A program made the position numbers and the translations under genes. Of a DNA stretch of 64,000 nucleotides, positions 33,062 to 57,597 are shown piece after piece (the stretch's first letter is position 1; each line of letters begins with the position of its first letter). The notes beneath the pieces were generated by a model, which saw only the letters and a list, made by a program, of their open reading frames with translations, did not search any database and was not told where the DNA came from. Origin of the DNA: Fereydounia khargensis (lineage: Eukaryota > Basidiomycota > Ustilaginomycetes > Urocystidales > Fereydouniaceae); contig JAOCZO010000006.1 in assembly GCA_026413255.1 (NCBI GenBank), positions 471,139 through 535,138 of the forward strand. Reading direction: 5' to 3'.

Positions 33062-33164
33062 TCCGAATTAGTTTAGTGGCTATGACGGCGCCTTGTCATG
33101 AAGACATCGCTCTCCGCGGTTCGAGTGAACGGCGCAGACCCGGGTTCAATTCCCGGATTCGGAG
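33062..33164 (+). tRNA. tRNA-Asp (anticodon GTC) with a 31-nt intron
   Basis: The acceptor stem TCCGAAT pairs perfectly with ATTCGGA, and the discriminator base is G at 33164. The D arm is GTTTAGTGGCTATGAC. The anticodon stem GCGCC/GGCGC encloses TTGTCA with anticodon GTC at 33095-33097. The T arm is CCGGG-TTCAATT-CCCGG. A 31-nt intron (about 33099-33129) sits one base 3' of the anticodon, the canonical eukaryotic position, leaving a 72-nt mature body. The intragenic A and B boxes are present. Confidence 0.93.
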
Positions 33165-41146: not shown

Positions 41147-41455
41147 TCACGCCGAGGGCTGTTGTTGAGAGTAATCAGTCATTATAGGGCTTTGAATGCC
41201 AGGACACCTCGTGTGGTTCATCGTGCAACACTTTATGGGCTGTACGGGCTGTTCGATATCACCTGAGACCTGAGCGGTCGACTGAGCATTTTGTTTTGGG
41301 CTGCAGCTGTCATGCATGTCATCATTTACGGCGGCTGTGTAGGTGTGCACTTCCGAAACAACATAAACCAAAGGGTGAAGCGTCGCAACTTGCCCTCTCT
41401 TCCTTAGACCTCCATTACGCTTTAGCTCTTCTTCTCAACCTTGCCTCTAGCAGTG
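41147..41455. other. Intergenic region, GH43 to MDR gene
   Basis: About 310 bp between tandem genes; nothing recognisable beyond presumed terminator and promoter. Confidence 0.5.
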
Positions 41456-42535
41456 ATGCGCGGAGTGATAGGTTCTCAAGCGTCAGCGGCGGTGTCAGAC
41501 GCACTTACCGAGCCCAAGGTCACATCAAGTAAGGATATCAAGGTGCGCGTACACGCCGTCGCACTCAACCCGCCTGATGCGTTCATGCTTGAACGCATGC
41601 AAGCCAGCGAGATCCGAATGGGCTCTGACTTTGCTGGCGTGGTGGAGGAGGTGTACGACCAAGGCAGTGGCCGGATTAAGGTCGGAGACCGAGTCTGCGG
41701 GATGGTGAGAGGCAATGTTGACACCGAATCGGGTGCCTTCGCCGAGTCGGTCGTCACTTGTTCCAAGCTCGTGGTCAAGCTTCCCGACCACATTGACTAT
41801 GAGCATGGCGCGACGCTTGGTATGAGTCTTTGGACTGCTATCCAGGCGTTGTTCCTCAAGGATCTACTACTCTCCTTTCCCGGGAAGACCAAAGAGGAGC
41901 CGCTTCTAATTTGGGGAGGCGCATCGGCCGTAGGGCAGTTTGCCATCCAGCTTGCCAGCCTAGCGGGGTACCATGTCTTGGCAACTTCGAGACGAGGGCA
42001 CTTTGCGCACTTGAAGAGTCTTGGTGCTCGACAGGTGTTCGACTACCGATCTTCTCAAGTATCTGAAGACATCCGGCACGGCGCACCGGAACTTGTCCAT
42101 TGCCTGGACTGTGTCTCGACTGCTGGTACTATGAACCAGTGCATCAAGTCTCTGAATCCCAAAAAGAACGTCATTCTCCAAGTCGTCCTACCACCCTCAA
42201 GCTCCTTCCATAACCCGTCTCCCGCACGGATCCAGATCGCATTCGCGCTAGTACACACAGGTCTCGGAGATCCGATCCCATGGGCATCGTATCTCTTTGA
42301 TCCTGTTCCCACCCATGAGGAGTTGGAACGTGACTGCAACAAGGCAGCAAAGTGGCTTGGTTTTGACCAAGGTATTCTTTACCCGCTTCTGAGTGAAGGC
42401 AAGATCAAGCCTCTACCTGTGACCAGAGAGGCAGGCGTTGGTCTGGATGCAATCCCGAACGCGGTCAAGGCAATGGCATCCGGGTCTATCCGAGGAAAGA
42501 AGCTCGTAGTGAGCAAGGTGGCCTCGACACGATGA
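41456..42535 (+). CDS. Medium-chain dehydrogenase/reductase, zinc-independent enoyl-reductase type
   Basis: A single exon of 359 residues from the ATG at 41456; the longer frame starts with TTG. The catalytic-domain opening VRVHAVALNPPDAFML is followed by GSDFAGVVEEV and GDRVCGMVRG. The nucleotide-binding motif is LLIWGGASAVGQFAIQLASLAGYHVLATSRR. The Cys/His zinc ligands of alcohol dehydrogenases are absent. The overall pattern matches fungal trans-enoyl reductases and quinone-oxidoreductase-like MDRs. It is the first of four closely packed genes and converges on the SelA-like gene, with 72 bp between the stops. Confidence 0.85.
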   Translation: MRGVIGSQASAAVSDALTEPKVTSSKDIKVRVHAVALNPPDAFMLERMQASEIRMGSDFAGVVEEVYDQGSGRIKVGDRVCGMVRGNVDTESGAFAESVVTCSKLVVKLPDHIDYEHGATLGMSLWTAIQALFLKDLLLSFPGKTKEEPLLIWGGASAVGQFAIQLASLAGYHVLATSRRGHFAHLKSLGARQVFDYRSSQVSEDIRHGAPELVHCLDCVSTAGTMNQCIKSLNPKKNVILQVVLPPSSSFHNPSPARIQIAFALVHTGLGDPIPWASYLFDPVPTHEELERDCNKAAKWLGFDQGILYPLLSEGKIKPLPVTREAGVGLDAIPNAVKAMASGSIRGKKLVVSKVASTR

Positions 42536-42607: not shown

Positions 42608-43711
42608 TCAACATCTCATGTCCAAGACTGCCTTGCGTATGCGGTTGATTATCATGTCTACTTCGTCATGGTCTAGCTGGACCAATTCAAACGACATTTC
42701 CCCTTTCGCCAGGCGGTCGTCAAAGAACCAGATGGGGGGATCACCATGTTTGAGGGCATGAGAGAGCCTGTGTGCGCTGACTCCGGGACTTTCTACGACC
42801 AGAATGGGCCGGGAGAAGGGAAGCTGCGTTGGATCTGGGTCTAGTCTGACTTGAATACCTGGCACATTGGCGAGCTTAGCAGCAAAGAGGTTTACCTTGT
42901 CCTCTTGTTTGGCTTTCCATCGGGGCAGGTCAAGCTCGAACCTCTCCTGCAGGGCAGCTAGGACACCGACAATGGCCTCCTTGCTAGCCTTCATGCCTCG
43001 GCCGATCCCCTTGGCCTGGCTCTTGACACTATCGATATAATGCCGACTGCCCACGATCAGACCTGCTGTTGGAGAGGCAAGGTACTTTTGCCCACTGAAG
43101 AGGACCAGATCAGCATAGGTGTCGCGGCAGATTTGGCCGGCACGCAGATCTTGTGCTGCGGCGTCGATGATAGCGGGTACGCCAGCCGCATGAGCCGCGC
43201 AAACCGCCTCAGGGAGAGAGACAGGAGAGGTGAGATCAGTGAGGCGCGAGGCGACGAGAAGAAGACATGCTGCGTCCGGATGTGCAAGTCCCCGAGCAAG
43301 AGCAAGCTCCTCTTTCGTGTCTACGACGAGGGGCTTGGCGCCGGCAATACGTATGGCTTGAAGTATCGAGTGACCATAGTTGACAACATGCGCAGCAGGG
43401 ATGACGACGCGGCTGCGCATTCCAGGCAGCAGCTGTGGTAACGCCGCGATGCGCTCCATGTCCGAGCCAGCCAAGACGGCAGCTACAGCAACAGTGATGG
43501 AAGCAGCCGTGCAATTGACCATGGTACCTGCCTGAGCGCCACTGAAGCGAGCCAGCTCAGTGTCGACTGCATCGTAGAGCTCGTCCATGACATAGTATTG
43601 TGATAGGGCTTTCGAAGCGCTCTCCGCCACGCTTGGGCTGCTGCGAGACACACCGAGTGGGGTGAAGGTCCCGCGTGCGTTGATCAGCTGTGTAAAGCGA
43701 CGGGCTGACAT
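42608..43711 (-). CDS. SelA-like PLP-dependent enzyme (COG1921 type)
   Basis: A single exon of 367 residues from the ATG at 43711. The start (TQLINARGTFTPLGVSRSSP) and the ELARFSGAQAGTMVNCTAASI block match the SelA / D-glucosaminate-6-phosphate ammonia-lyase family. The PLP lysine is probably K209 in DLVLFSGQKYLASP. IIDAAAQDL holds the cofactor Asp. Eukaryotes do not use SelA for selenocysteine, so a small-molecule lyase or aldolase-like reaction is more likely. Close relatives that I know are mainly bacterial, with scattered fungal copies. Intronless, as are its three neighbours, unlike most of the window. Confidence 0.82.
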   Translation of the reverse strand: MSARRFTQLINARGTFTPLGVSRSSPSVAESASKALSQYYVMDELYDAVDTELARFSGAQAGTMVNCTAASITVAVAAVLAGSDMERIAALPQLLPGMRSRVVIPAAHVVNYGHSILQAIRIAGAKPLVVDTKEELALARGLAHPDAACLLLVASRLTDLTSPVSLPEAVCAAHAAGVPAIIDAAAQDLRAGQICRDTYADLVLFSGQKYLASPTAGLIVGSRHYIDSVKSQAKGIGRGMKASKEAIVGVLAALQERFELDLPRWKAKQEDKVNLFAAKLANVPGIQVRLDPDPTQLPFSRPILVVESPGVSAHRLSHALKHGDPPIWFFDDRLAKGEMSFELVQLDHDEVDMIINRIRKAVLDMRC

Positions 43712-44217
43712 GGTTTCCGCTTTGCAATGGTGATTGTACTTGACATTGTGTCCTTGTTGGATGCAGAGAGGTTGGAGGCCAAGGTGTGAAGAAGTGGACT
43801 GCGCACAGACCAAGCAATATTACAACAGCCACAGCCTGAAAGGTAGATTTGTGACTTTGTCTTCCGTCCCAGAGGACGGAATTTTCCTCGGCATCTGTTC
43901 TTTGGTCTGGCCGGCAGAGTATGCTTTTGAAATCTCTTGAATGGGAAGCTGCGCGCAGCCTGGGTTGGCGTTGGTGGAAATGGTCGAGTCAGTTGGTCAG
44001 TTTGAGACTGTAGAGGTGCAATGCCTGCAAACCCGATCCCGCAAATCCGATACCGCACAGTACAGCAGGGCGCGTATGGAAGTATGACAGACGCCGACCC
44101 GCCGACCCGCCGACCCTATCGTGCAGACAGATGTGCGGTTTACGCTCAGTCTCTTGTTTCCTGTATAAGAAGCCGCTCCAACAGTCATATAATCGCCTCT
44201 GTCTCTGATATCCTGAA
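43712..44217. promoter_or_regulatory. Divergent promoter, SelA-like / PaiB-like
   Basis: 506 bp between divergent ATGs. It contains a short CCGACCCGCCGACCCGCC repeat (44095-44112) and a GTACAG motif at 44059. Confidence 0.55.
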
Positions 44218-44964
44218 ATGTACCTCCGATCAGTCCACGCCGAAAACTCGCTGCCCGTGTTGCAGCAGCTCGTCAGGGACAACCCATTGGGCATCCTGAC
44301 GACTGCCCTTGCCAACTCCAAGTATCCCCTGATCCAGGCCAGTCACATTCCCTGGGTACTAGATGTACCGACTGCGGGGCACGCGGATCAATCGACCAGC
44401 CCGGGAGTACTTCGGGGTCATCTGGCGCGAGCAAACCCCCAGGCCAAGGCTTTGATTGAAGCAGCTCAGGCATCCGCAGATGGACGTACCCTCGACACTG
44501 AGGTCATGGTACTCTTCCACGGCCCTGCTCACAGCTATGTGACGCCCAAGTTTTACGTGTCCACCAAGCCAGATACGGGCAAGGTAGTCCCCACCTGGAA
44601 TTATGCTGCCGCGCAAGCCTATGGCCGCATAACAGTCTACCACGATACCTCTGACGCACGCTCTGACGCATTTCTGTCCAGCCAGATTGCGGACCTGTCC
44701 GAACAGCAGGAGCGTGCCATGGGATTTGAAAGGACGTGGAAGGTATCTGATGCACCGGGCCGCTACATTGATATGCTCAAAAAGGCTATCCTTGGTGTCG
44801 AAATCCAATTAGACCGACTCGAGGGCAAGTTCAAGATGAGCCAGGAGCTCTCGCCTGCCGACCGCGAGGGTGTGGTTCAGGGATTCAAGCAGCTTGGCAC
44901 TGAAACCGGAGAGGCCGTGTCTCAGCTTGTACAAACGTGCTCTCCTCTAGGTACTACAGCCTAG
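44218..44964 (+). CDS. PaiB-like FMN-binding protein (FMN_bind_2 family)
   Basis: A single exon of 248 residues. The start MYLRSVHAENSLPVLQQLVRDNPLGIL, the LRGHLARANPQ block, VMVLFHGPAHSYVTPKFY, VPTWNYAAAQAYG and the C-terminal MLKKAILGVEIQLDRLEGKFKMSQ are all hallmarks of the PaiB split-barrel family. In Bacillus PaiB pairs with PaiA. Biochemical function in fungi is not established; an FMN-binding or negative regulatory role is inferred. Its 3' end lies 77 bp from the stop of the PaiA-like gene. Confidence 0.92.
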   Translation: MYLRSVHAENSLPVLQQLVRDNPLGILTTALANSKYPLIQASHIPWVLDVPTAGHADQSTSPGVLRGHLARANPQAKALIEAAQASADGRTLDTEVMVLFHGPAHSYVTPKFYVSTKPDTGKVVPTWNYAAAQAYGRITVYHDTSDARSDAFLSSQIADLSEQQERAMGFERTWKVSDAPGRYIDMLKKAILGVEIQLDRLEGKFKMSQELSPADREGVVQGFKQLGTETGEAVSQLVQTCSPLGTTA

Positions 44965-45041
44965 TTACCGCAACCAGCAATCTTCAATCCATGTCTCGTT
45001 CCACAGCATGTGCTGTAATCTATGACAGTATTGTTGCGGGT

Positions 45042-45617
45042 CTATTGAGGAGGTACGTTGAGTGGTTTCTGCAGGATCCAATCAGTCTGAACGCAAGAGC
45101 CCATTACAAAGTCATGCTCTCCTACGCGTTCAAAGCCATAGCGCTGGTAGAAACGCTGAGCTTTCACGTTCTCTTCCCACACGCCAAGCCACATGAGCTT
45201 AAACTTGGGCGTAGCGTGCCGGATGGCACGCTGAAGGAGTGCCGAGCCGATCCCACTGCCGTGACTCTGGGAACTGGTGTAGATGCGCTGAAGCTCAACA
45301 GCCTCACTGGCAGGGAGCGTGATGCACGGCTCGCTGGATCCCTCTGTGATCTGGACAAAGCCAAGCAGGCTGCCCCCTGGGTCCTTGGCAAGGTAGAACG
45401 TGTGGGCCTTGTCCTCAAGCTGGGACTGGATCCTGCTCACCGAGTAGGAGGTCTGCAAGTACTTTTGCAAGTCCTCAGCCGGCATCGAGTGTGCAAACGA
45501 TTTGCTGAACACCTCGGCACCTAGCACAGCAATTGCACCTGCATCCTCAGCGGTACCCGGCACGATGCTCCAAGAGGATTGCTTGGCCTTGGCGGTCTGC
45601 GTTAGGTCAACTGGCAT
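45042..45617 (-). CDS. PaiA-like GNAT acetyltransferase
   Basis: A single exon of 191 residues from the ATG at 45617. GNAT motif A is present as LQRIYTSSQSHGSGIGSALLQRAI, with the acetyl-CoA loop SHGSGIG. MWLGVWEENVKAQRFYQRYGFERVGEHDFVMGS is characteristic of PaiA-type polyamine N-acetyltransferases, as is the N-terminal DLQKYLQTSYSVSRIQSQL. Bacterial PaiA acetylates spermidine and spermine; that substrate is inferred. It lies tail to tail with the PaiB-like gene, preserving the bacterial partnership in a different orientation. Confidence 0.9.
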   Translation of the reverse strand: MPVDLTQTAKAKQSSWSIVPGTAEDAGAIAVLGAEVFSKSFAHSMPAEDLQKYLQTSYSVSRIQSQLEDKAHTFYLAKDPGGSLLGFVQITEGSSEPCITLPASEAVELQRIYTSSQSHGSGIGSALLQRAIRHATPKFKLMWLGVWEENVKAQRFYQRYGFERVGEHDFVMGSCVQTDWILQKPLNVPPQ

Positions 45618-46225
45618 GGCAGGGCAGAAGGATCAGCTGGCAAGCTTCTTCCGTTCCGTTCCGTTGCAGTGACGCCTTAGCTTACCTGTCATTGAAGAGC
45701 GTCAGAGATGGTGAATTGGCGCAAGCAAAGGCAAGTCCGGTGGATCCGCGTTCTTTTTGAGTGCTTCTCGGTCGGGTGGGTGTTCCGGGTAAGCATGACG
45801 CGCTGCTGACAGCACTGTTCTTCATCCTCTACACACTGTTCACGCTCCTCACAACATGCCCAACTGCGCGCGTAGTGGACCCTGAGACAAGTGACTCGTG
45901 TCGCAATACAAGTACTGTATCACACTTGTCACTGAACTAAACCCCGAAATTTCCAACACGCTCGAGCTGAGCAGCGTTTGCTGGACCCTTTCCGCAATGT
46001 CCTGCCCCTACCCTTCCTTCGCAAGACCACCATGCCCCTCTCATGTCACTTGCTTCGCTTGCCACACTTAAGAACCTATCCTCGTCCAGTCCTTGTCTGC
46101 ACCAGGCCTATTAGAATGTATGACACGCCTTCGTTTGACCGGAACGGATACAACATGCAATTCGGATCAGACCACAATAGACTAACTTTAGTGAGATCGC
46201 TTGAGCTGGATGCGCGAGCACCTCC
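45618..46225. other. Intergenic region before the small-secreted-protein island
   Basis: About 600 bp without a gene. One GTAC motif at 45910. CCGTTCCGTTCCGTT short repeat at 45648-45665. Confidence 0.5.
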
Positions 46226-47154
46226 TCAAGTAGCACTCTGCTTGATAACGACTCCCTGTACGGGTGAAGTCCAAGTTTTCTTGTCCTCGCTCCCGATCAG
46301 AGCGATCGTGTAAGGACTTCCGCTGCCAGAGCAGGACAGCTCGAGGGCCTTCTTTGGAGCAGTGGATACAGTAATACTGAATCCATCGAGGACAACGGGC
46401 TCGGAGTAAGCCTTTCCGTTCAGCCCCCTCCAGAAATGAAATCACTTGGGAATTTTTTAGGAAAGTCGTCAGGTGTCTCGTCAAACTTGGTAACATACTG
46501 GATATCGGGAAGATGAGCGTTTGTATTTCAGGCCACCGCTTTGGTAAGACTCAAGTTTGCTTACAATGGGCTGGTCCTTTCCCTTGCAGAAGTTGAACGA
46601 CGGACCTTCGACTTCAAGAGTGAAAGTGTTGGGCGTAGCGCAGCTTCCCCCATTCTCACCGTGGGTCACCGGGATTTGTTTACCATCTTTTGTCCAGCCA
46701 TAAGTGAAGAGTTCGTTGACTTGTTGTTGCTCCCCCCTAATGTACCCATCACCTTGGGTAAGAAGAAGATTGAGGGCAGGGGTGACAGGCAACCCTTCGG
46801 CAATTGAAGCTTAGTACGCAAAAGAGACCATCGTCAGTCTGCAAGCTAGAAAACACTACAATGCAAAAATCAACAAATTACAAGCACGATACAATCCTGC
46901 TCACTTGAGAGTCCAACAACCCTGATTGCTCCGTCTTGCGATGGCTTTCCAGCGAATTCCCAACTGAATCCTAGATCCTCAACAGTGATACCATCCTCTA
47001 GGGTCAATGAACAGGTTGCGACTCCGGCCGGAGGGGAGAGGAGCTTGAAAGGGGTAGGAGGGCCGTCTCGCTTGATCATTTGAGCCAGAGAAAATTCAGC
47101 TAGCGCCAGGCTACAGAAGGCAACAATGACGATCGTCTTGAGAACAGTCCGCAT
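46226..47154 (-). pseudogene. Small secreted protein, copy A of a tandem family, frameshifted in exon 3
   Basis: Exons 46905-47154 and 46565-46809 are intact and encode a signal peptide (MRTVLKTIVIVAFCSLALA), a VATCSLTLEDG block and a Cys-containing middle. Exon 3 starts at 46497 in phase but meets TGA at 46420-46422. Homology to copies B and C (APKKALELSCSG and DKKTWT blocks) continues in another frame to a stop at 46226. The break falls in a run of five C on the + strand (46424-46428), so a one-base length change is the simplest cause. It may be a decayed copy or a homopolymer sequencing error. If translated as is, the product is truncated after about 190 residues. Confidence 0.8.
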
Positions 47155-48232
47155 TCTTACTTGTAAGTCTTTGATGGAAGTGTGTGGCTTATGAGGTTTG
47201 CCTGTTTGAAGGAGAAGAGCTGTGATCTGAGAGGCGATGATGCTGTGGGAGATACTGTAAAGGGCAGTCAAAGCTCGCCCTTTTATGGCTTTTGCTACCC
47301 GAAGCGTCCAAGAGCAAAGCGCAGCAACAACGATAGTATTAGCGTTGAAACCTCGCCCCACAACGTACCAAGCATTCGCTTTCCTCTTCTAGTAGAAAAG
47401 CAGTGTAGGGTTGCTCCGAGCTTGAATAGCCCCGCATTGAATTAGCCCTGTGTTGTGCTTCACGCTGGACAAGTTACAAAAGGTTGAGCGCCAAAGGAAC
47501 CAACCCCCAGAGAATGTGCCCCACGCGGATAAGCCCCGAATTGAATGAGACCCAAACCGTGTTAGCCCCGCTCTATGAGCGCCCCACTGGATGAGCTGTC
47601 GGAACATGAGCGCCGGAAGTGGTTGTCTGGTGGCACAAACGCCCCGAATGGTCAAAATTCGAATTTTTCCCCAGATGTGTAGTTGCTACTCTTAGGTTGT
47701 TGTGAATGAACGATGAAGCCAATTGAGCTGCTAAGCTCCGAGCTGAATGAAGCCCAAAAGGGAAGGACTAAGTTCAGCTTCCCTATGAAAAGCAGAACAA
47801 CCGCCCGGAGAGCAGATTGGAAAAGCTGTGCAGACGTGCTCCTTTGAACTCACAGCAAATCGTGTACGACAAGATTACGAAGTGTGACCAAGACGAGCTG
47901 CTTTTCAAGTCTCATCCCTGTCTTCAAACGGCTTTACAGACCGGGTCCAATTAAGCATATTCGGACCTGATTGGCTTGACTTTAGTCACTTTGCCAGCAC
48001 CCGTGTTTGGTCTCTTTGCAGCAGAGAATGCTGCCCACTAGCTCTCTGAAAATGCGATGGTAGTTACAGCGTTATAGATTGTTTATTGTACCTTCTGGAA
48101 CGATGAAAATCTGAATGCTAGCCAAGTCACGGACTGGGGAGATGAATGGTGCCAGCACGGTCTCTAGGCACGTACACGACATGTGTGCAAGACGTCACAG
48201 CCAATACTGTACCAGCCGTGCTAGCTGCCTCT
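47155..48232. other. Intergenic region between copies A and B
   Basis: About 1.1 kb without a gene. The part nearer to copy A carries its GCCCCG motif cluster; the rest has no recognisable feature. Confidence 0.6.
47428..47646 (-). promoter_or_regulatory. GCCCCG motif cluster upstream of copy A
   Basis: AGCCCCG at 47428, AAGCCCCGAA at 47531, TTAGCCCCG at 47563 and GCCCCGAA at 47641, plus near matches GTGCCCCAC (47516) and GCGCCCCAC (47579). These lie 270-490 bp upstream of the copy A ATG. On the coding strand the motif reads CGGGGC. Confidence 0.6.
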
Positions 48233-49130
48233 TCAAGCATCGGTCTGCTTGATTTCGACGCCATTGGGGGCAGTCCAAGTCTTCTTGTCTTCACTGGCAG
48301 TCAAGGCAACAGTGTAGGGTTTCCCGCGATCAGAGCTGCAGCTCAGCTGAAGGGATGTTTTGGGGACGCTGGTCAAGGTGACAATGAATCCTTTGATCAC
48401 GATCGATTTTTCGTAGGGCTTCCCATCGGCTCCATTTGCAGTCAGGAAAACGCTTGAAAACGATTTAGGAAAGTTTGCGGGCTTGTCTTTCAACCCCACG
48501 TGAACCTATAGTAGATAGAGCAAAATTTTCAAGCTATCAGTAAGGATCAGCGATTGTCGAGGATCGATCCTGAGCTCACAGATGGCTGGCCTTTTTTCTC
48601 GCAAAAGTCAACTGTCGAGTCGATGGCTTGCACGTACAGCGTAATATCTGCAGGGCAGGATGCTCCATTTGAAATGGAGTCCATGTCTCGATCGAAAGCT
48701 TGGCCACCCTGTGTCATGCCCTGGAGGTTCCAGGAATATCCAGGCATGTTCTCCTTTTTCCAACTGTGCATGATTGAAGGTGCAACCGGTAATCCGTCCT
48801 GGATCGTGGCTTTGGGTTTGTCATGAATTCAGATTGAGTCTTGTGCTGAAAGCAATAGTACCAGATCTAAGGAAGCAAGGTGGGGATCTACTCACTTGCT
48901 AGGCCGACAAACTTGGAGATAAGGTCATTTGGTAGATGATGATAGTCCGCTTCGATGCCGACGTTGACAAAGCTGACGCCACCGTCCAAAGCCAAAGTAC
49001 AGGTTGCGACACCACTTGGGGGAGTGATCGGATTGTGGGCAGGTACGCTGGCTCCCTGAGTGAGAACGTTGCTGGCCAGTCCTAGGCTGAGGAGCGAAGT
49101 AGCCAAATACGTGTTCAAAGCGGTCCACAT
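48233..49130 (-). CDS. Small secreted protein, copy B of the tandem family
   Basis: Exons 48896-49130, 48580-48809 and 48233-48505 give 245 residues, with intron phases 1 and 0 exactly as in copies A and C. A signal peptide (MWTALNTYLATSLLSLGLASNVLT) is followed by a VATCTLALDGGVSF block, a diverged middle exon (TIQDGLPVAPS then Cys-poor) and the shared last exon (DKPANFPKSF, LQLSCSSDRGKPYTVALTASEDKKTWTAP). I recognise no named family. Subtelomeric position, secretion signal and tandem duplication are typical of candidate effectors, but that is inference. Confidence 0.8.
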
Positions 49131-50114
49131 CGTTTGTTCAAGCAAGGACTGTAGTTGATACGTCAGGGGTATGAATGTTGTCTATCTCCAAGATTGAGCT
49201 GTTGTGAACGAGTCAGAGAATGGTGAGCTGAAAATTGTTGATAATACGGTATGGGTTGGAGGAGAGGAACAACTACTTTTTATGCACAATTACAGAATCA
49301 GTCCAACGACGTGAGGAAGCAGGTCCAATAGCGAAAGTTGTTGTGGCTCTGAGCTCTGTGCTCCTCGAACGATGACGAGCAGCATTCTATGGGGCAATCA
49401 CTTTGCCTGTATCGTCAAAACAAATTGCGTGTAAACTGTAGAAAGCCCCGAACAGTAGGAGCCCCGTCACGACAAGCCCCGAGGATAGCCTCCTCCAGAA
49501 CTGGCGCCCTTGTGGGTGGCGCACTTTGTCAATTCAATTACAGTACAGTCCAGTCCGTAAGTAGCCAGCAGAGGATACGTGGCTTCATCCGGCCGAGCAA
49601 AACCAGAACAGCTTGGGCCAGACGTACAGCAGACCAGGCAATCCAACAATGCCAGCGAGGCATGCAAATGGGAAACAACCTAGTCGGGGCGAATTCGAGC
49701 GCAGGCCTCAGCCGTTTAACTCCGCCCCGAACTGAGACACATATTCCGTGATTATTTCAATCAAGCTAAAGGGCAGCAAGCTTCATTAGGCAAGACTTTG
49801 ACAAGGCCTCGGACGAAGAAGAAGAAGCGCCCGAGTCTCATCCGTAGCAACAGGAAATGTCAGCCAATCTACTTCAATGTAGTTGTAATCTTTGACAGTA
49901 CTGGTACGTAACACATGCTTTCGGTAACAAAGTCTGTGGATAGTGCGTAAGGAGGCATTCCCCTGACACTGTCCCCATTCATGAGACTACAAGGGTTGTG
50001 TCCTTTTCTCCCACGTCAGCCACACGGGAAACCAACAAATGAAGCCTGAGAACAATCTTGCCATGGTATCCCCCATGCTGAAAACGGGGATGATGGCGCA
50101 GCAACAACCCCCGG
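49131..50114. other. Intergenic region upstream of copy B
   Basis: About 980 bp without a gene. It includes the GCCCCG cluster of copy B and a GTACAGTCCAGTCC stretch near 49541. Confidence 0.6.
49445..49730 (-). promoter_or_regulatory. GCCCCG motif cluster upstream of copy B
   Basis: AAGCCCCGAA at 49444, GAGCCCCGTC at 49459, AAGCCCCGAG at 49474, inverted TCGGGGCGAA at 49684 and CGCCCCGAAC at 49723, all 310-600 bp upstream of the copy B ATG. Confidence 0.6.
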
Positions 50115-50315
50115 ATGAAGTTCGGCACGTACCATGGCACCGCAGCATTCTCCCATGCCAACTACTCAGACAGCCACCAAATGATGCCCGGAACAGACCA
50201 TGGCGCAGCTTCCTCCCACAGCGACCATGCGGTTGCTGGCACTTGTCATCCGAAAGACAACGATTTTGGCCTGTTTGTAGCCTTTGAGATGCTTGGTTGT
50301 GGCTGTGCAGCGTAA
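50115..50315 (+). CDS. Possible small His/Ser-rich ORF, remnant or small protein
   Basis: 66 codons from an ATG. The composition is non-random, with repeated HG, SH and DH pairs (TYHGTAAFSHANYSDSH, TDHGAASSHSDH) and a Cys-containing end (LGCGCAA). There is no clear signal peptide and no recognised family. It may be a fragment of a larger decayed gene. Confidence 0.3.
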   Translation: MKFGTYHGTAAFSHANYSDSHQMMPGTDHGAASSHSDHAVAGTCHPKDNDFGLFVAFEMLGCGCAA

Positions 50316-50336
50316 AGCAAACGGCTCTTTCCTACT

Positions 50337-50389
50337 ATGCAGTCTCATCAGTCCTTACGGAAACAATGCAGTCTCACCAGTCCTTACGG
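50337..50389. repeat. Two 24-bp direct repeats
   Basis: ATGCAGTCTC(A)(T/C)CAGTCCTTACGG occurs at 50337 and again at 50366, separated by 5 bp, about 140-190 bp upstream of the 50524 gene. Confidence 0.85.
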
Positions 50390-50523
50390 CACACATTTGG
50401 TGGAAAAGCACAGGCCACGGCCGTCGGGGATAAATAGGGAGTCTCGGACTACGTGTGTCGCTCCCTCTGTCTTCTCATTCACTCTACCATCTTCCACTCA
50501 AGTCCTCGCATTCCGATCCCACC

Positions 50524-51183
50524 ATGAAGCACACCCTCTCAGCTTTCAGTATCCTTGTGACCATCCTCAATCTGCCGACTCCTTCACTGTCTTCCACGAT
50601 ATCATGCAAGTCAGAGGCTCAGTATCCAGCTGATATCAACAACGTTGCGATAAAGCACTGCCCCCCGAACATCAATAACAATGTGAGTTATCAGTTCATT
50701 GCTGAGTTGTGGCTTTTGACGTGATCAGGAAGCTGACTGCAACGTACGAATGCAGTGGCTTCAAACTTACGCCGAGCAAGTTTCGAAAGGACTGATCCAA
50801 TACAAGGCTGAACTGCACCCTTTCGATGCCCCCTCAAGCAATCCGCCCCAGGCCAAAGTCGTGATTTGCACTTAGGACGTCAATGGGTGAGCAGATCTTC
50901 AGCTCAATTGATTGCTTGATACAGCAGTTTGACTGTTCTTCTTTGAACCAAAAGTGATCTTAACGTCAAAGAGTTCTTTTTTGGTGTCACAGTCGAAGGG
51001 TACCGAAACCCTGACGGCGGAGTGACCACGAGTGTGTGGGAGTGAGTGTTTAAGCATCTCTGTTCTGCACTCCAGAAACTAAAGTTGACCACAAATCACA
51101 GATTCCGATGCGGCTCGTTCATTGATGACCAGCCCGATTACTGTCTTGGTCTCAAAGCCGCCTGCGCGGTGGCCAAGGGCTAG
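50524..51183 (+). pseudogene. Small secreted protein gene with an internal TAG
   Basis: Four exons, 50524-50682, 50756-50886, 50955-51041 and 51102-51183, close in phase (0, 2, 2) and run to a final TAG. They encode a signal peptide (MKHTLSAFSILVTILNLPTPSLSS) and a Cys-bearing mature part (HCPPNINNN, KVVIC, EFFFGVTVEGYRNPDGG, FRCGSFIDDQPDYCLGLKAAC). One codon in exon 2, TAG at 50873-50875, interrupts the frame. Downstream exons still read well, so the lesion looks recent, or the short form of about 92 residues is the product. I recognise no family. It is unrelated in sequence to copies A-C. Confidence 0.7.
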
Positions 51184-51276
51184 GGCAGTCAAATCGGCTG
51201 AGCCCGTTCAACGAAATTCGAGTTTCTCAGCTACTTTGGCAGCCAAGTTGACAATCAGCCATGCTCAGCGGTGACT

Positions 51277-51915
51277 ATGCTTGCTGTAATGGTAGTTTTC
51301 GGGCTCGGCATTAATCCTCAATACAACAATCTGAACCTCACATACAGTATTGTCTTACGCCTGATTCCTTCCCGTCTGGCTAAATGGGTAAACTTGACGT
51401 TGATGGTGATGAAGGAAGGAGATTCTGATTTCAGGCATCAACAAGCCAACTCGTACAATGGTGTGCGAAGAATGTGCATTTCGGTGACAGACGTGTTGCA
51501 ACACATCGGTATGGCTTGGCTTTTGGAACTCAAGGAGACAAGACATCGGCCTGCAGCAGCATTGTGGTTTTCAAGTTTCTCTGGAATTGTATTTGCTCCA
51601 TCTATCCACTTCGCGAGTGAACTGAGTCAACTTCTTGATCGAGAGCTTTTCAGTGTTGTGAACAGGATCTTACAATCTTCTCAAGCCGCACCTGAACCAA
51701 AAGGGCGTAGAAGGAGGGGCTTGCCCTCTTCATCTTTTGAGAAAGATTCACTGCGTTCGCAGCCAGTGAGGTTCCCCTACCAACACAGACGGGAGCCTCT
51801 ACTACTTGACCATGCCTTTTCTTTTTTTCCGCTTTTGCGTTCTGAACGGTCCGATGGTGTGAAGGTTGGAAAATACCTACCCTTCGCACTCAATGCTCTC
51901 AATAGCTGTTCTTAG
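51277..51915 (+). CDS. Long ORF of uncertain status
   Basis: 213 codons from an ATG, without introns. The N terminus is hydrophobic (MLAVMVVFGLG) and an Arg cluster (KGRRRRG) lies near residue 155. No conserved motif is recognised, and composition is not clearly coding. An antisense frame overlaps it. Confidence 0.2.
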   Translation: MLAVMVVFGLGINPQYNNLNLTYSIVLRLIPSRLAKWVNLTLMVMKEGDSDFRHQQANSYNGVRRMCISVTDVLQHIGMAWLLELKETRHRPAAALWFSSFSGIVFAPSIHFASELSQLLDRELFSVVNRILQSSQAAPEPKGRRRRGLPSSSFEKDSLRSQPVRFPYQHRREPLLLDHAFSFFPLLRSERSDGVKVGKYLPFALNALNSCS

Positions 51916-52475
51916 AGGCACGGGTTTTGAATTTGAACGAGTCACGCACTGATGATGGCAGAAGCAGTCAAAGACAACCGAATAACCAGGTCATTTACAG
52001 TATCCTATCCCGGTCAAGTACAATGTGAGTCGCTACTGGAAACCGGCTGGGTGGACTCAGCCAGATAATGCTATCGTGCTGTTGATCATGCGTGAGGTTG
52101 ACATGAGGATCTTGAGAGGATAGCCTAACTTTGCGGCTGCATAGAACAAGATACTCCCAACAACGTTGATGCTGATCAACTGGCATGAGGTACTGCACAG
52201 CTTTCTTGTCATGTCGGTCCAAGAATCAACGGATCTTGAAACAAGTCGAGGGAGCACTCCATTTGGATCGGAAAGGAAATGCATGAATTTCTAGATCACT
52301 AGCTACTGTACGTGGCCTATCAGCTCAAGCTCGGGGGAGGTTTGCGATTGTGACTGGATCGTATAGAAGAAGGACAGGATAAACGTCGTGGATACTCGAG
52401 AAAGGTGCGCACATGTTTCAGCAATCACTGTAGGTGTTTGCCATTTTCCGTGTCGCAGAAGGCGTGGCAGCACGC
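51916..52475. other. Intergenic region downstream of copy C
   Basis: About 560 bp. Nothing recognisable apart from a short TACAGTATCC near 51998. Confidence 0.5.
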
Positions 52476-53371
52476 CTACTTCGTTTTCGGGGGTGGACCC
52501 TGCTTGATCTCGACCCCCTCCTTGGGTGCAGTCCAGACCTTCTTGTCTGAACTGCCAGTCAAGGTGATGGTGTAGGAGTTTCCTCCTTTAGCAGAGCTGC
52601 AGGTGAGCTCAAGAGGCTTCTTGGGCGCGGCAGTCACAGTAAGGCTGACGCCCTTAAAGAAGAGAGACTTGTCGAAAGGGCCGCCACTCGATGCCCATCC
52701 GGTGAAAAAAACGCTAGGAAAAGTCGTCGGAAAGTTCTCAGGCTTGTCCTGAAGCCCAACGATTCTCTGATTGAAGGATTGCAAAAGTCAGTGAGCGTCA
52801 GGCAAATATGGCGCTTCCGGTTCGACTCACACTTTTACTGTCTTTGTCAAAACACTTGACACTTTCGGTGCTAGCGGCTACAATTGAGAACGTGTTGTCC
52901 AGCGAACACTTGTCTCCATCTTTGCCCTGATCGGCTGTCGTGATCTGTTTTCCATCCTGTGTCCAGCCATCGAACCACGCACGGTCATAGTTCTTCCCGT
53001 CACGAAAGAATTTGAGGGAGGGCGCGACTGGCACGCCATCCTGGATTGAGGCTTCAAGCATCAGAGTTTCAGCGGGCGAGCTCGAATTTACTTTGACTGT
53101 CAATAGCGTGACAGCACTTACCAGTGAGTCCAGCGAACAAGTAAGAATCGCCTTGTCTTGGTGACCTGTCGCCGAGGTAATCAAAGTCCAGTTTGGTAAA
53201 GCCGACACCGTCTTCAAGGGTCAGAGAGCAGACCGGAACCGTGTCCGGGGTGGCCAGGAGCTCGAAAGGAGCAGGCGGGTTGCCACGCCTAATCATTTTG
53301 GCATGAGCAATGTCGGCAAATGCCAGACTGAAGAAGGACAGAGTCACGTAGGTCTTGAGAGCGGTCCACAT
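52476..53371 (-). CDS. Small secreted protein, copy C of the tandem family
   Basis: Exons 53122-53371, 52831-53051 and 52476-52766 give 253 residues. Exon 1 is the same length as in copy A (250 bp). The signal peptide (MWTALKTYVTLSFFSLAFADIAHA) is followed by VPVCSLTLEDGVGFTKLDF, ASIQDGVPVAPSLKFF, WTQDGKQIT and the shared last exon (DKPENFPTTFPSVFFTG, PKKPLELTCSSAKGG, DKKVWTAPKEG). Intact, like copy B. Copies A and C are closest to each other in exons 1-2 (MIKRDGPPTPFKLL versus MIRRGNPPAPFELL). Function unknown; secreted. Confidence 0.82.
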
Positions 53372-54431
53372 GGTTCGTAGAAGCTGATAGCAAGTTGGTG
53401 TAGTAGTAGCTTAATGTTTTGTTTGTCCGGAAGCGGAAGAGTGTTTTGATTTTACTTGATTGAGTAGTGATGATAAGAAGATGATGGAGGGAGGATGGTA
53501 AGCCGCACTATTTATTCTTTCTTCCCACGCTTGGAGCTTGCTTGAAATCTACACCATGAACACCAGCAGCGCCAGCCTCTTTCACTGCGGGACCTGCGAT
53601 GACGAGCCATTTCTGCGTGTTCTCCGGCTCGAATCATCATTAGTGTGTTGTCAGGGTTCGTACGGGCTCGCCCCGAGTAGGCCGCTCAAATACGGGGAAA
53701 GCCTCGGAGCTTGTCAAAAGAATGCTGAGGCATGCAACTACAAGGAGCTGAGCAGTGACGACTACAACATGCCGAATTCCGAGACAAGCAAAAGCCCCGA
53801 AAGCACAGTAAGGATAATGGCGAATGCTTACAATCGTTCCGGTCAGTCATAACGCCCCGTAGCGCAATTTGGACTGTGTAAAGATGAATTTTTGGAAGTC
53901 CTCCGACCCGACCATAAAGCCCCGAGAAGGTAGGAAGACTCCAACCGCGGCTGAAAAGAAAGAAAAAGTCACGAAGCCAGTCGAACTCAGAATGGCAGGA
54001 GGAAGCGCCCCGATATCAGCCCCAGCAGGTACATCGGGGCGTAAAAAGTGCCAAGAAACTGCCATATGGGCTAGCACAGGAGCGTTGCGAACAATGGGGT
54101 GAAATGAAACAACGTCCGGGTGCGTGAGACTGATACAGTACAATATCAATCGGCTCCGACTATGAAAGTCAATCCAAGGGTAGGCCATGGAAAATGGAAA
54201 GTAAAACAACATGCATGGCCTGCCCATCTGAAATACATTAGGTGTAGTAAAAACACCAGGAAAAAGCTAGTGACGGCCAGACCAAAGGTTGAATCATGTG
54301 CACAAGATTGTACGGCAGGCTGTTTGGCACAGCAAGACATTGTGAGTTGTTATGCGACCGACGTCGTCCAAGCGGTGGGGAACAGCTTGCTGACGACCTT
54401 GTGCTTGCCGATGAAAATGTGCGCTCTGCTG
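53372..54431. other. Intergenic region upstream of copy C
   Basis: About 1.06 kb without a gene; holds the GCCCCG cluster of copy C. Confidence 0.6.
53670..54041 (-). promoter_or_regulatory. GCCCCG motif cluster upstream of copy C
   Basis: CGCCCCGAG at 53669, AAGCCCCGAAA at 53792, ACGCCCCGTAG at 53852, AAGCCCCGAG at 53917, GCGCCCCGAT at 54005 and inverted TCGGGGCGT at 54034, all 300-670 bp upstream of the copy C ATG. Confidence 0.6.
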
Positions 54432-55175
54432 TCAGAGCACTTCGCTTCTCGTGGTGCTGGCTAGTTTTTGACGTTTCGCTTCGGGCTCATCGCTCAAGTC
54501 GGTGTCGGTAGATTCTGGCAAATCGAGCGGTTTGGGTCGCATATACTGTTCATCTACCCCATCTTCCAAGGGGCTTAGCCCTTTGACTCCAGCCTTTGGG
54601 GAATCGTGATGTCCATTCAGTTCCATCTCAAAGCTTTTGAGTGTTGATTTGATTCTTGTTGGATCATGCTGCTCGACATCTACCTCTTCCATGTTTTGTT
54701 GCAGTTGATCTAATGTCTTGATCATACTCTGTTTCTCAGCTTCCTTGGACAGGGCATATTTGGCAGGTCCAAATGTAAGTTCCGATATGATTGACGCAGA
54801 CCTTGTAGTTCCTATTGATAGAAGCAAAAGCCTGTTCATAGAATGTGATTGGCTGGTCCTTGGTGGGCCTGATAGCGCTGCTCTCTGCCAGTTTAGATGC
54901 CTTGTCCGAATGTCCTTGAAATCATACACTTTATCAAAACGTATTTTGTGAAAGCCAGCTGTCTTCCGTGCAGGCCTGAGGATTGCAATAGGAACTCGTT
55001 CAAAGAATCCACTGCCACCGCCAGCCTTTGAAGATGCTACCACATCCAAATTTGGTATCATTTCGCCGTTTATGCTTGTGATTGCTTCAAGCTCAAAGTT
55101 GCCATTCACGACTGGTGCAAGTATCCCGTGGTGACCAGCTTTCAAACCAGATAGAGAGGACTGAACAGTTTCCAT
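54432..55175 (-). CDS. Hypothetical protein with a basic nuclear-signal-like tail
   Basis: A single exon of 247 residues from an ATG at 55175. The N-terminal half is mixed (GHHGILAPVVNGNFELEAI, FERVPIAILRPARKTAGFHKIRF). The C-terminal half is hydrophilic and helical, with a possible coiled coil (KEAEKQSMIKTLDQLQQNMEEVDVE cut into shorter heptads) and a terminal EPEAKRQKLAS that resembles a nuclear localisation signal. No family recognised. It may be lineage-specific or the last exon of a larger gene. Confidence 0.45.
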   Translation of the reverse strand: METVQSSLSGLKAGHHGILAPVVNGNFELEAITSINGEMIPNLDVVASSKAGGGSGFFERVPIAILRPARKTAGFHKIRFDKVYDFKDIRTRHLNWQRAALSGPPRTSQSHSMNRLLLLSIGTTRSASIISELTFGPAKYALSKEAEKQSMIKTLDQLQQNMEEVDVEQHDPTRIKSTLKSFEMELNGHHDSPKAGVKGLSPLEDGVDEQYMRPKPLDLPESTDTDLSDEPEAKRQKLASTTRSEVL

Positions 55176-55243
55176 TTTGTTTGTTGCAGAGACGTTTCCA
55201 TCGGTTGACTTCTTAAGAAGCGGAGCGCATTGATAACGATAGA

Positions 55244-55387
55244 TTATGCGGTTTCGTCAGTGTAAGTTGGTGCGTTTGCTTGAAAGTCGTCCAGGGCATC
55301 GATGAGAATGCTTGGATCAAACGCTGCTGCAACTAAAGCCCTGCTGAAGAAGAGGGCAATGATTGTGAGCGCTTCCCCTGGGGCCAT
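55244..55387 (-). CDS. Possible 47-residue secreted peptide or first exon
   Basis: An ATG at 55387 opens a frame with a hydrophobic start (MAPGEALTIIALFFSRALVAAA) that looks like a signal peptide, then an acidic tail (DPSILIDALDDFQANAP). It lies just upstream of the 54432-55175 frame on the same strand, so it could be its first exon, but I found no splice that closes. Confidence 0.3.
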   Translation of the reverse strand: MAPGEALTIIALFFSRALVAAAFDPSILIDALDDFQANAPTYTDETA

Positions 55388-57597
55388 CTTGATGTCAAGA
55401 AGAGACAGATCAGATCAATTAGGCCTCGGAACAACAAGGTAGTGGACAATTTACAATATACTGTACCATCAGTACTCTTTTGCGCGGAGTGGAGCAGACT
55501 TACTCTTTTAAATACCGTGTGTTGTAGTGCCTTCCAATCTTAAGCTTCGGACAATAGCCTTTTTCTGCTCGGACACTGTCAGTTGGATGGGACAGGGCTG
55601 TGAGCCCGGATGGATTGATTCGGAGGCATGGATGGGCTCGTAAAACGAAAACGAAACACGGAGCGCCGGCATGCCTCACGCAAGCCACACGGGGCTGAAG
55701 GCAGTCACAGGAAACATACCACGCTAGGTTGCGAAAGGGCACGGATGATGTGTCGGTTCAATCCTAGTGCTTCAAAAGTTGCTTGCAAGCGTGGTGCCAA
55801 ACTCCTCCGAGCTCCGAGCTCCACAGTCTCCAATGTCGTTCAATATCATGTTGAAAATGTAGACGAAGAGCGTGATCTAGAGTTCCCTGATTGAGGCGAC
55901 GAATCGACGTGGTAATCGAGAGATTCTTTGAACCACGAGAAAAAGGGCTGAGCAGGAACACTCATCCAACAGTACTTTCAGCGGATATCCAGATTCAGAG
56001 GTATCGGTTGAGAATAGCTCGGTCAAAGAAACGAGCTCCGAGATTTTCTCCGCCAGTCATTGGCTGTGTCGAGTCACCGAGACTAGGCGACGGAAGGGCT
56101 GTCCCGATATGACTCTGAATAATTGAGACATGCTCCAACGCAAGGCTGAACCAGAGTTGGGTTTCAGCAATGAATACTATGGAGGGTGACCCTGGATCTT
56201 GATCCTTTGAATACAACCCAAAAGCTGTACAGGGTAAAGAGCCTGTCTTGATGGTGCCTGTAACGCCGTCCTCGAGATTGTCTGGTCAAATGCAATGAAG
56301 CGTTCCGCCACTTTCGCTAGCAACATCAAGCGTGTTCTCTCAATGACATCAGATTCAAGAACGGATCATCAGTGCATGTCATTGTCTAGAAGCGGGATTC
56401 TTCCGTCTCTACTGTCTAATAAGCTGTCCCCTGGCAACGATACCGCTAGCCTTTATTTACCTTCTGTCAAAGACACTCGGGTGTTGGTTCCAGCTTGATG
56501 GTGATGTGTCTACGTGTTAGGTACGTACAGAAGCTGGGGTTGGATACGACACAAGTCGAAGCTGAGTAAGTCGTGACGCCAGTATGTGTCAGGCTTGCGC
56601 TTGGAGGATTGTACTCACGTTCTTTTATTTGCGGCTGCTCTGATTCAGGTCAAGGTACTCTCGCTGCGCTGTGCCAATGAAGTTGTGAAGAGGGTCAGCA
56701 GCGCGATCTAGGTTTTGCACATACTGTACTGTATCTTGTCATTGGAGAGGACAATGGCTCTGAAAAAATTACTGTATCACGTCCCAAGTATGCCACTACC
56801 CCTTACAATCATTGAGACACGGCTCGTGTGCGGTAAGAACGGAGCAGAGAGCGCCCTACTGGGGGCAGAATCAGCTTAAACCTCATTGATTTACGCCAAT
56901 CTGTGCCTTGTGTCACCATGACAATTGCGCCGTTGCTCTAGCAATGCAACCCCAATCCAGGTGTTACCAGGGAAAGATGGCACCCAGCTGCGACCAGATT
57001 ATTGCTAGCATTTCTGAGGATCGTGCCAAAGCGCACCTCACACATATGATGCTTGCGATTGTACAGAATGCCTTCCAGTAGCCGTTCCTGAAATTGAGTC
57101 AGTCTCTGTCTTCTCTGGTATGACATGAAGCGAGGAAGGGTGCAAGATGACGGAGGCCAAGCTGCCGGTGAGCATGACCCTGTCCCACAACCACGTCAAG
57201 TATCAGGTTGCCTGTCCATCTGTCTCCCCCCACAGATGTGACCTCACACGGGCGAGGCTCTGAGCATTCTGGAGCTTGCGCACCGTTGACACTTCTGGCA
57301 CTGATGCAAGTGCAATGCATAATGAACCATCAGTCACTTGGCAAGAAAACAAGAAAATTAGTTGACAGCCGGAATCAGAGAACAAGAGACGAGGAGAGAC
57401 AGAGAGACAGATAGGCCAGCCAAATAGACACATGGACTACACTTAGGGGCCGGTTGCCCGTGCATCGGGGAAAAAACGGAGCGATGCAACGACGTGACAG
57501 ATATCTCCACTAATGTGAGGCGAGACGGTCAAGCAGAGAAAGTACTGAAGCAAGCAGAGGGGTCATCTCGTTTCCCTGACAGCAGACGCCCAGCCAT
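55388..57597. other. Gene-poor subtelomeric stretch, about 2.2 kb
   Basis: No confident gene. A minus-strand frame around 55995-56260 (NLEDGVTGTIKTGSLPC, then IVFIAETQLWFSLALE) may be a relic exon. GTAC motifs occur at 55458-55475 and 56720-56730. Confidence 0.5.

What the first reader, a model, noticed from the sequence alone, without database searches (positions are those of the whole stretch)
42608..45617. Bacterial-type PaiA/PaiB pair next to a SelA-like enzyme in a fungal genome
PaiA-like GNAT and PaiB-like FMN-binding proteins are operon partners in bacteria. Here they lie tail to tail, 77 bp apart, both intronless, beside an intronless SelA-like PLP enzyme and an intronless MDR, in an otherwise intron-rich window. 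The pairing suggests a conserved functional unit (polyamine or amino-compound detoxification, by inference) and possible acquisition from bacteria as a block.
Basis: partly seen in the sequence, partly recalled or inferred. Interest (0 to 1): 0.75.

Follow-up and report, generated by a model that had tools for sequence, protein, structure and literature searches.

The report
Fungal gene neighbours of mixed ancestry
Two old fungal genes whose bacterial cousins sometimes sit together lie side by side in this fungus, next to one gene that does look borrowed from bacteria, so the group was most likely assembled piece by piece and not copied from a bacterium as a block.

Summary
Three complete single-ORF genes lie at 42608-45617: a SelA/DgaE-type PLP enzyme (-), a PaiB-type FMN_bind_2 protein (+) and a PaiA-like GNAT (-). 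PaiB and GNAT converge, 77 bp apart; the PLP enzyme and PaiB diverge from a 506-bp gap. An MDR lies just outside. 'Acquired from bacteria as a block' is not supported. PaiB belongs to a large fungal clade (100/99 against 15 bacterial rows). The GNAT sits with other Ustilaginomycotina (97/88) on the fungal side (91/79). Only the PLP enzyme looks bacterial; its donor is unresolved and its three closest relatives are unnamed. None of 80 bacterial loci of the PLP enzyme carries PaiA or PaiB; none of 18 bacterial PaiB loci carries PaiA; none of 40 PaiA-like loci carries PaiB. Among regions examined, a paiA-paiB run was seen only in a Metabacillus plasmid. Adjacency was not seen in the nearest relatives, by an indirect and partial contig-length check. 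Being intronless is not special here. Likely biochemistry, inferred: a heme-binding PaiB of the hydroxylamine-dehydratase kind, a small-amine acetyltransferase and a PLP ammonia-lyase. A lineage-specific amine-handling cluster is possible but unproven.

The parts
42608..43711 (-). SelA-like / DgaE-family fold-type I PLP enzyme, 367 aa, single ORF; probable bacterial acquisition
43712..44217 (.). 506-bp head-to-head intergenic region, presumed divergent promoter of the PLP enzyme and PaiB (inferred)
   Evidence: sequence; promoter function inferred
44218..44964 (+). PaiB-type FMN_bind_2 protein, 248 aa, fungal clade, GHxARANP heme-type motif (His68, Asn73)
44965..45041 (.). 77-bp tail-to-tail gap between PaiB and GNAT
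45042..45617 (-). PaiA-like GNAT acetyltransferase, 191 aa, Ustilaginomycotina clade
41441..42535 (+). Medium-chain dehydrogenase/reductase, LovC/quinone-oxidoreductase-like; flanking gene, history not tested

Best explanation
The locus is a patchwork of genes with different histories. The PaiB-type gene is an old fungal family member. The PaiA-like GNAT is a fungal gene shared with other Ustilaginomycotina. The SelA-like gene is a bacterial-type PLP enzyme of the DgaE (TIGR01437) superfamily, probably acquired singly by this lineage or by an ancestor shared with its unnamed 60-62% relatives. Likely workings: PaiB binds heme through His68 in GHxARANP and acts on N-O/N-hydroxyl amines like the NohD-type dehydratases rather than as a transcription factor (inferred from sequence). 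The GNAT acetylates a small amine (family-level inference). The PLP enzyme removes ammonia from an amino acid or amino-sugar acid (inferred from DgaE kinship, with some help from amidohydrolase neighbours in bacterial relatives). PaiB and the PLP enzyme may share a 506-bp divergent promoter. Shown: layout, families, tree positions. Inferred: substrates, co-regulation, co-function.
For: PaiB: 7161 hits; the best 120 were listed, and every listed hit that carries an organism name is fungal, closest Violaceomyces palustris at 65%. 26 named-fungus rows (window included) form one side of a 100/99 branch against 15 bacterial rows. GNAT: closest Pseudozyma flocculosa 55% and Moesziomyces 54%; bacterial matches covering most of the protein reach 38% (short partial ones up to 45%); window with P. 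flocculosa, Moesziomyces and P. hubeiensis 97/88, named fungi against bacteria 91/79, window grouped with bacteria AU p 0.048. PLP enzyme: organism names among the 120 listed of 466 hits are bacterial, except one labelled Lipomyces starkeyi (P0231) that is 73% identical to a Belnapia protein and groups with it and with Roseococcus; the window joins P0195/P0196 at 100/100 on the bacterial ingroup side. No linkage in bacteria: 0 of 80 PLP-enzyme loci (kept of 98 found) hold PaiA/PaiB, 0 of 18 PaiB places hold PaiA or the PLP enzyme, 0 of 40 PaiA-like loci hold PaiB, although 12 of 15 PLP-enzyme-bearing genomes searched also encode PaiB. Motif: [G/A]HxA..NP in 118 of 120 listed PaiB proteins, Thr before Pro in 120 of 120; PDB relatives are PaiB, NohD and piperazate synthases; [quoted passage not shown] Amidohydrolase beside the PLP enzyme: one sequence cluster in 16 of 80 loci, mostly the distant planctomycete kind (one representative identified), and one near it in L005.
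Against: The donor and exact place of the PLP enzyme are unresolved: AU does not reject the window clade as sister to all sampled non-planctomycete bacteria (p 0.415). P0195, P0196 and P0198 are unnamed and may be fungal or bacterial. The fungal-bacterial split of the GNAT has support 11 in the 112-row quick tree and 91/79 in the smaller careful tree. The 15 bacterial PaiB rows come only from PLP-enzyme-bearing genomes. Only 5 of those 15 match the same heme-motif pattern and 12 have Ser instead of Thr, so the motif is not uniform in the family, and the Lys-173 equivalent was not mapped. Among five closer bacterial relatives whose neighbours were identified, only L005 had an amidohydrolase. 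Fungal relatives' genomes could not be read, so synteny was tested only indirectly. No structure model could be made.
Confidence: 0.7

Rival explanations
1. The three genes were acquired together from a bacterium as a block.
For: Adjacency; a paiA-paiB run in a Metabacillus plasmid; the PLP enzyme looks bacterial.
Against: PaiB and GNAT group with fungi; none of 80 bacterial PLP-enzyme loci has PaiA or PaiB; the layout is convergent and divergent, not operonic.
Confidence: 0.04
2. A lineage-specific functional cluster: native PaiB and GNAT were brought beside an acquired PLP enzyme, and the three are co-regulated to dispose of toxic amines or N-hydroxylated amines.
For: Tight spacing, 77 bp and 506 bp; compatible amine chemistry; in bacteria PaiB stands next to a divergent PLP-dependent aminotransferase-family gene in 3 of 7 plasmid regions (the Deinococcus one passes the PdxR model; the others by annotation) and next to relatives of these in 3 (plus one weak) of 18 genome places, which hints at a tie between PaiB and amine/PLP metabolism.
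Against: Adjacency not seen in nearest relatives by the partial contig-length check; no ornithine/lysine N-hydroxylase candidate found in the own genome (weak test in an intron-bearing genome); the bacterial PLP neighbours are another PLP family.
Confidence: 0.2
3. Chance neighbours in a compact genome, with no shared function; intronless state and names made them stand out.
For: Other long single ORFs in the window; separate histories; no conserved adjacency seen.
Against: A pre-named pair adjacent by chance is only about 1 in 10^3 (own estimate).
Confidence: 0.55
4. The SelA-like gene is an ancient fungal gene lost elsewhere, not a transfer.
For: AU test does not exclude a sister position to the sampled non-planctomycete bacteria (p 0.415); host-like GC3.
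Against: Organism names in the 120 listed hits are bacterial plus one probable contaminant; would need loss in nearly all fungi; rooted on Planctomycetota it lies on the bacterial ingroup side at 100/100.
Confidence: 0.15

Closest known systems
Bacillus-type PaiA (spermidine/spermine N-acetyltransferase; PDB 1tiq, with 4e2a and 8osp scoring higher)
   Same: GNAT fold and acetyl-CoA-site-like motif; best NCBIfam model is PaiA
   Different: 101.2 bits against the curated 250; fungal clade; convergent with PaiB instead of an operon
PaiB / FMN_bind_2 (PDB 2ol5, 9vyc)
   Same: Whole-length family match; GHxARxNP motif
   Different: Fungal clade with longer loops (248 aa against 202 for the solved chains)
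NohD N-hydroxylamine dehydratase and piperazate synthases (PDB 9oqx, 9ebk, 9jn4)
   Same: Same family; heme His, Asn at +5 and Ser/Thr-Pro conserved; Ala at His+2 as in two of the three NohD chains displayed (the third has Asn; which is unaltered is not stated in the output)
   Different: Ala, not Asn, at His+2, so unlike the N-N bond-forming SbPZS as described; activity untested
DgaE family, D-glucosaminate-6-phosphate ammonia-lyase (TIGR01437; PDB 7lc0; also 8t7j, a putative selenocysteine synthase)
   Same: Full-length match, conserved Lys209 region SGQKYLASPTAG
   Different: Below the subfamily (210.1 of 385.3) and DgaE equivalog (181.1 of 600) cut-offs; substrate unknown
SelA selenocysteine synthase
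   Same: Partial PLP-domain match (Pfam 35.2 bits)
   Different: TIGR00474 43 of 267.9 bits over 56 model positions; not a selenocysteine synthase

Membership tests
PaiA (NF053587) | score over curated cut-off 250 | tested here: not met
   101.2 bits; three other fungal GNATs tested score 89.8-105.6, the Metabacillus control 331
PaiA (NF053587) | acetyl-CoA-site-type motif after RIY | tested here: met
   RIYTSSQSHGSGIG in the window protein and its 99% copy P0001; the motif's meaning is recalled
PaiA (NF053587) | acetylates spermidine/spermine | not testable with these tools
   needs an enzyme assay
PaiB / FMN_bind_2 (PF04299) | profile match over cut-off | tested here: met
   169.2 bits against 22.4, profile positions 1-168 of 168
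PaiB / FMN_bind_2 (PF04299) | heme-ligand His and Asn +5 | tested here: met
   H68 and N73 invariant in 22 sequences; motif in 118 of 120 listed hits, but in 5 of 15 bacterial rows by the same pattern
PaiB / FMN_bind_2 (PF04299) | DNA binding as negative regulator | not testable with these tools
   needs a binding assay
Piperazate synthase | Asn at His+2 (Asn-63 in SbPZS) | tested here: not met
   Ala in 118 of 118 listed proteins with the motif; Asn-63 from a passage of PMC13274692; that it defines the activity is inferred
DgaE family (TIGR01437) | score over cut-off 385.3 | tested here: not met
   210.1 bits
DgaE family (TIGR01437) | PLP lysine | tested here: met
   K209 invariant in 20 aligned sequences; its role as PLP lysine is recalled
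SelA (TIGR00474) | full-length match over cut-off 267.9 | tested here: not met
   43 bits over model positions 277-332
Bacterial paiAB operon acquired as a block | all genes nested in the same bacterial lineage | tested here: not met
Bacterial paiAB operon acquired as a block | bacterial locus with the trio | tested here: not met
   0 of 80 PLP-enzyme loci (one 57-aa GNAT piece in L061 is not close); loci beyond these 80 were not examined

The most novel reading that the evidence does not exclude
A smut-lineage fungus built a new amine-handling cluster by setting a horizontally acquired bacterial DgaE-type PLP lyase head to head with a resident PaiB that is a heme-dependent N-hydroxylamine dehydratase, with a resident GNAT alongside. 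Fungal 'PAI 2-type transcriptional regulators', counted among transcription factors in a fungal catalogue, would then be heme enzymes.
Probability: 0.15. Interest if true: 0.55.

Novelty: new member of a known kind. Interest (0 to 1): 0.3.

Why it matters
It shows how bacterial gene names can suggest a block transfer that trees do not support, and it singles out one probable bacteria-to-fungus transfer (the DgaE-type enzyme). It also makes a cheap prediction: the large fungal PaiB family, listed among transcription factors of Botrytis cinerea and Trichoderma atroviride (PMC8637145, table passage seen), keeps the heme-site motif and may be enzymes.

Tried and rejected
Tried: a viral-contig scan with the fungal PaiB alignment (4 stretches matched a pattern, none a relative). 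PaiB as piperazate synthase: unlikely, Ala instead of Asn at His+2. SelA-like as selenocysteine synthase: cut-off not met. Search for an ornithine/lysine N-hydroxylase in the own genome that might feed PaiB: none found, weak negative because of introns. Literature: ten searches; no title or abstract start in the listings, several of them capped, describes a fungal PaiA-PaiB pair or this fungal SelA-like gene. Only listings were seen, except passages and section 2.5 of PMC13274692 and one table passage of PMC8637145. The NohD paper (PMC12576811) is not held and was not read. The MDR's ancestry was not tested. Of 466 SelA-like and 7161 PaiB hits only the best 120 each could be seen.

Trees used parts of what was held: (quick) 39 of 40 bacterial PaiA-like loci and 72 of 73 listed GNAT hits; 17 of 40 and 25 of 73; 51 of 119 listed PaiB relatives and 15 bacterial rows; (quick) 60 of 80 loci; 30 of 80 loci.

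Shared lengths: 5103 for GNAT and SelA-like (the near-identical copies, as expected); 1482 (too short to hold both genes, so coincidence); 4605 for PaiB and SelA-like (different source databases, taken as coincidence). GNAT and PaiB share none. This is indirect evidence only.
Full report
Observation. The ORFs described are present, complete and in the stated layout: PLP enzyme 42608-43711 (-), PaiB 44218-44964 (+), GNAT 45042-45617 (-), with the MDR at 41441-42535 (+). PaiB and the GNAT are tail to tail, 77 bp apart; the PLP enzyme and PaiB are head to head with 506 bp between. The window lies on contig 6 of a 10.46-Mb, 40-contig assembly, where PaiB, the PLP enzyme and the GNAT give one match each. 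The nearest named relatives, Violaceomyces palustris for PaiB and Pseudozyma flocculosa for the GNAT, suggest Ustilaginomycotina (their taxonomy is recalled). Lack of introns is less telling than claimed: of 10 ORFs examined, those of an Hsp104/ClpB-like protein and a PKA regulatory subunit are long single ORFs, while a GH43-like gene (matches under the cut-off) and GTP cyclohydrolase I look split. GC3 of the four genes is that of their surroundings.

Histories. PaiB: 7161 hits; the 120 listed, the window's own entry aside, have 52-65% identity, and those with an organism name are all fungal. The 40 plasmid hits listed have about 33-42%. In a 67-row careful tree 26 named-fungus rows, window included, are one side of a 100/99 branch against 15 bacterial rows, all of these from genomes that carry the PLP enzyme; the window stands beside Violaceomyces without a supported fork. 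GNAT: 73 hits in all, closest in Ustilaginaceae, then Leotiomycetes and other Pezizomycotina (ranks recalled). Bacterial matches covering most of the protein reach 38% in 595 genomes of two phyla and in plasmids; short partial matches reach 45%. A 43-row careful tree puts the window with P. flocculosa, Moesziomyces and P. hubeiensis (97/88); fungi against bacteria 91/79; grouping the window with bacteria gives AU p 0.048. In the 112-row quick tree the fungal-bacterial branch had support of only 11, so that split rests on the smaller set. PLP enzyme: 466 hits; after a 99% copy the closest are three unnamed proteins at 60-62%, then proteins at 54% or less whose organism names are bacterial with one exception. 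The window joins the unnamed ones at 100/100 on the side of Pseudomonadota, Actinomycetota and Chloroflexota when rooted on Planctomycetota (one search agrees). Its exact place is unresolved (AU p 0.415). The exception, labelled Lipomyces starkeyi (P0231), is 73% identical to a Belnapia protein and groups with Belnapia and Roseococcus, so it may be contamination. Three genes, at least two histories: no block transfer.

Linkage in bacteria. Of 98 relatives of the PLP enzyme found, 80 loci were kept. None of the 80 (up to 7 kb each side) holds PaiA or PaiB; one 57-aa GNAT piece in L061 at E 5e-4 is not close. Of 15 such genomes, 12 encode PaiB, yet none of the 18 PaiB places, two of which give identical proteins, holds the PLP enzyme or PaiA within about 1.5 kb. 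None of 40 PaiA-like loci (about 3-3.5 kb each) holds PaiB. Of 7 plasmid PaiB regions none has an annotated GNAT neighbour (the plasmid gene tables are incomplete); 3 have a divergent PLP-dependent aminotransferase-family gene (the Deinococcus one passes the PdxR cut-off) and 1 a class I/II aminotransferase. The 18 places show 3 relatives of such genes plus one weak match. Of three plasmid regions of PaiA-like GNATs, Metabacillus has a MarR-PaiA-PaiB run, a positive control; Listeria and Ideonella show no PaiB beside the GNAT. So the pair is not a general bacterial rule in this sample.

Linkage in fungi. Fungal genomes could not be read. As a substitute, the contig lengths printed for each hit were compared (the limits of this check are told under Tried and rejected). 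The Ustilaginaceae GNAT contigs (1270782, 498841, 503295) do not recur in the typed PaiB list, and the Violaceomyces PaiB contig (16135) and the P0195 contig (30975) do not recur in the GNAT list. This is weak evidence against conserved adjacency.

Function. The listed PaiB proteins keep the heme-type motif (118 of 120) and Thr before Pro (120 of 120); among 15 bacterial rows 5 match the same motif pattern and 12 have Ser for Thr. PDB relatives are PaiB, NohD N-hydroxylamine dehydratase and piperazate synthases. PMC13274692 (section 2.5 and passages read) reports heme on His-61, contacts of Asn-63 and Asn-66, heme binding by PaiB and no N-N bond activity for PaiB. The fungal proteins have Ala at His+2, as two of three displayed NohD chains do, and not the Asn of SbPZS, so a dehydratase-like heme protein is the best guess; the Lys-173 equivalent was not mapped and the catalytic outcome is inferred. 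A fungal catalogue counts the family as transcription factors, with 2 and 1 members in its two species (PMC8637145, table passage). The PLP enzyme is nearest to 8t7j and to DgaE 7lc0. In bacterial relatives, mostly the distant planctomycete kind, one cluster of similar genes stands beside it in 16 of 80 loci; its representative is an amidohydrolase, and one also lies near it in L005. In the other four closer loci examined the neighbours were unrelated (transposase, sigma factor, transporter receptor, pyridine-nucleotide oxidoreductase, TrkA, helicase). That fits deamination of a released amino compound, by weak inference. The GNAT's closest solved relatives are 4e2a, 8osp and PaiA 1tiq.

Verdict. 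A real but mostly ordinary neighbourhood: fungal PaiB, fungal GNAT and one probable bacterial acquisition. Co-function is possible and testable; block acquisition is not supported.

Noticed in passing
window 33062-33164 (+): Rfam finds a tRNA of 103 bases (49.3 bits) that the bacterial-code ARAGORN scan missed; the length suggests an intron.
   Followed up: no
window 46000-58000: GC falls from about 0.55 to 0.48-0.51 and long ORFs become scarce just beside the cluster; cause unknown.
   Followed up: no
protein P0298: A 594-aa metagenomic protein, nearest a Streptomyces row in the tree, fuses an Acetyltransf_3-type GNAT (PF13302) to a SelA-like enzyme.
   Followed up: partly
L142, L145, L148, L082, L084, L088: Bacterial PaiB genes repeatedly neighbour PLP-dependent aminotransferase-family genes, PdxR-like where tested (L142), hinting at an amine or B6 link.
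   Followed up: partly
16 loci cluster 0 (L049, L051, L052, L055-L057, L063-L065, L067, L068, L072, L074, L075 shown): SelA-like relatives, mostly planctomycete, have an oppositely oriented neighbour at -1.1 to -2.0 kb; the one tested (L075) is an amidohydrolase.
   Followed up: partly
protein P0231: A SelA-like protein labelled Lipomyces starkeyi is 73% identical to a Belnapia protein: probable bacterial contamination or a second transfer.
   Followed up: partly
window 41441-42535 (+): The flanking MDR's best solved relative is an enoyl reductase, with LovC next.
   Followed up: no
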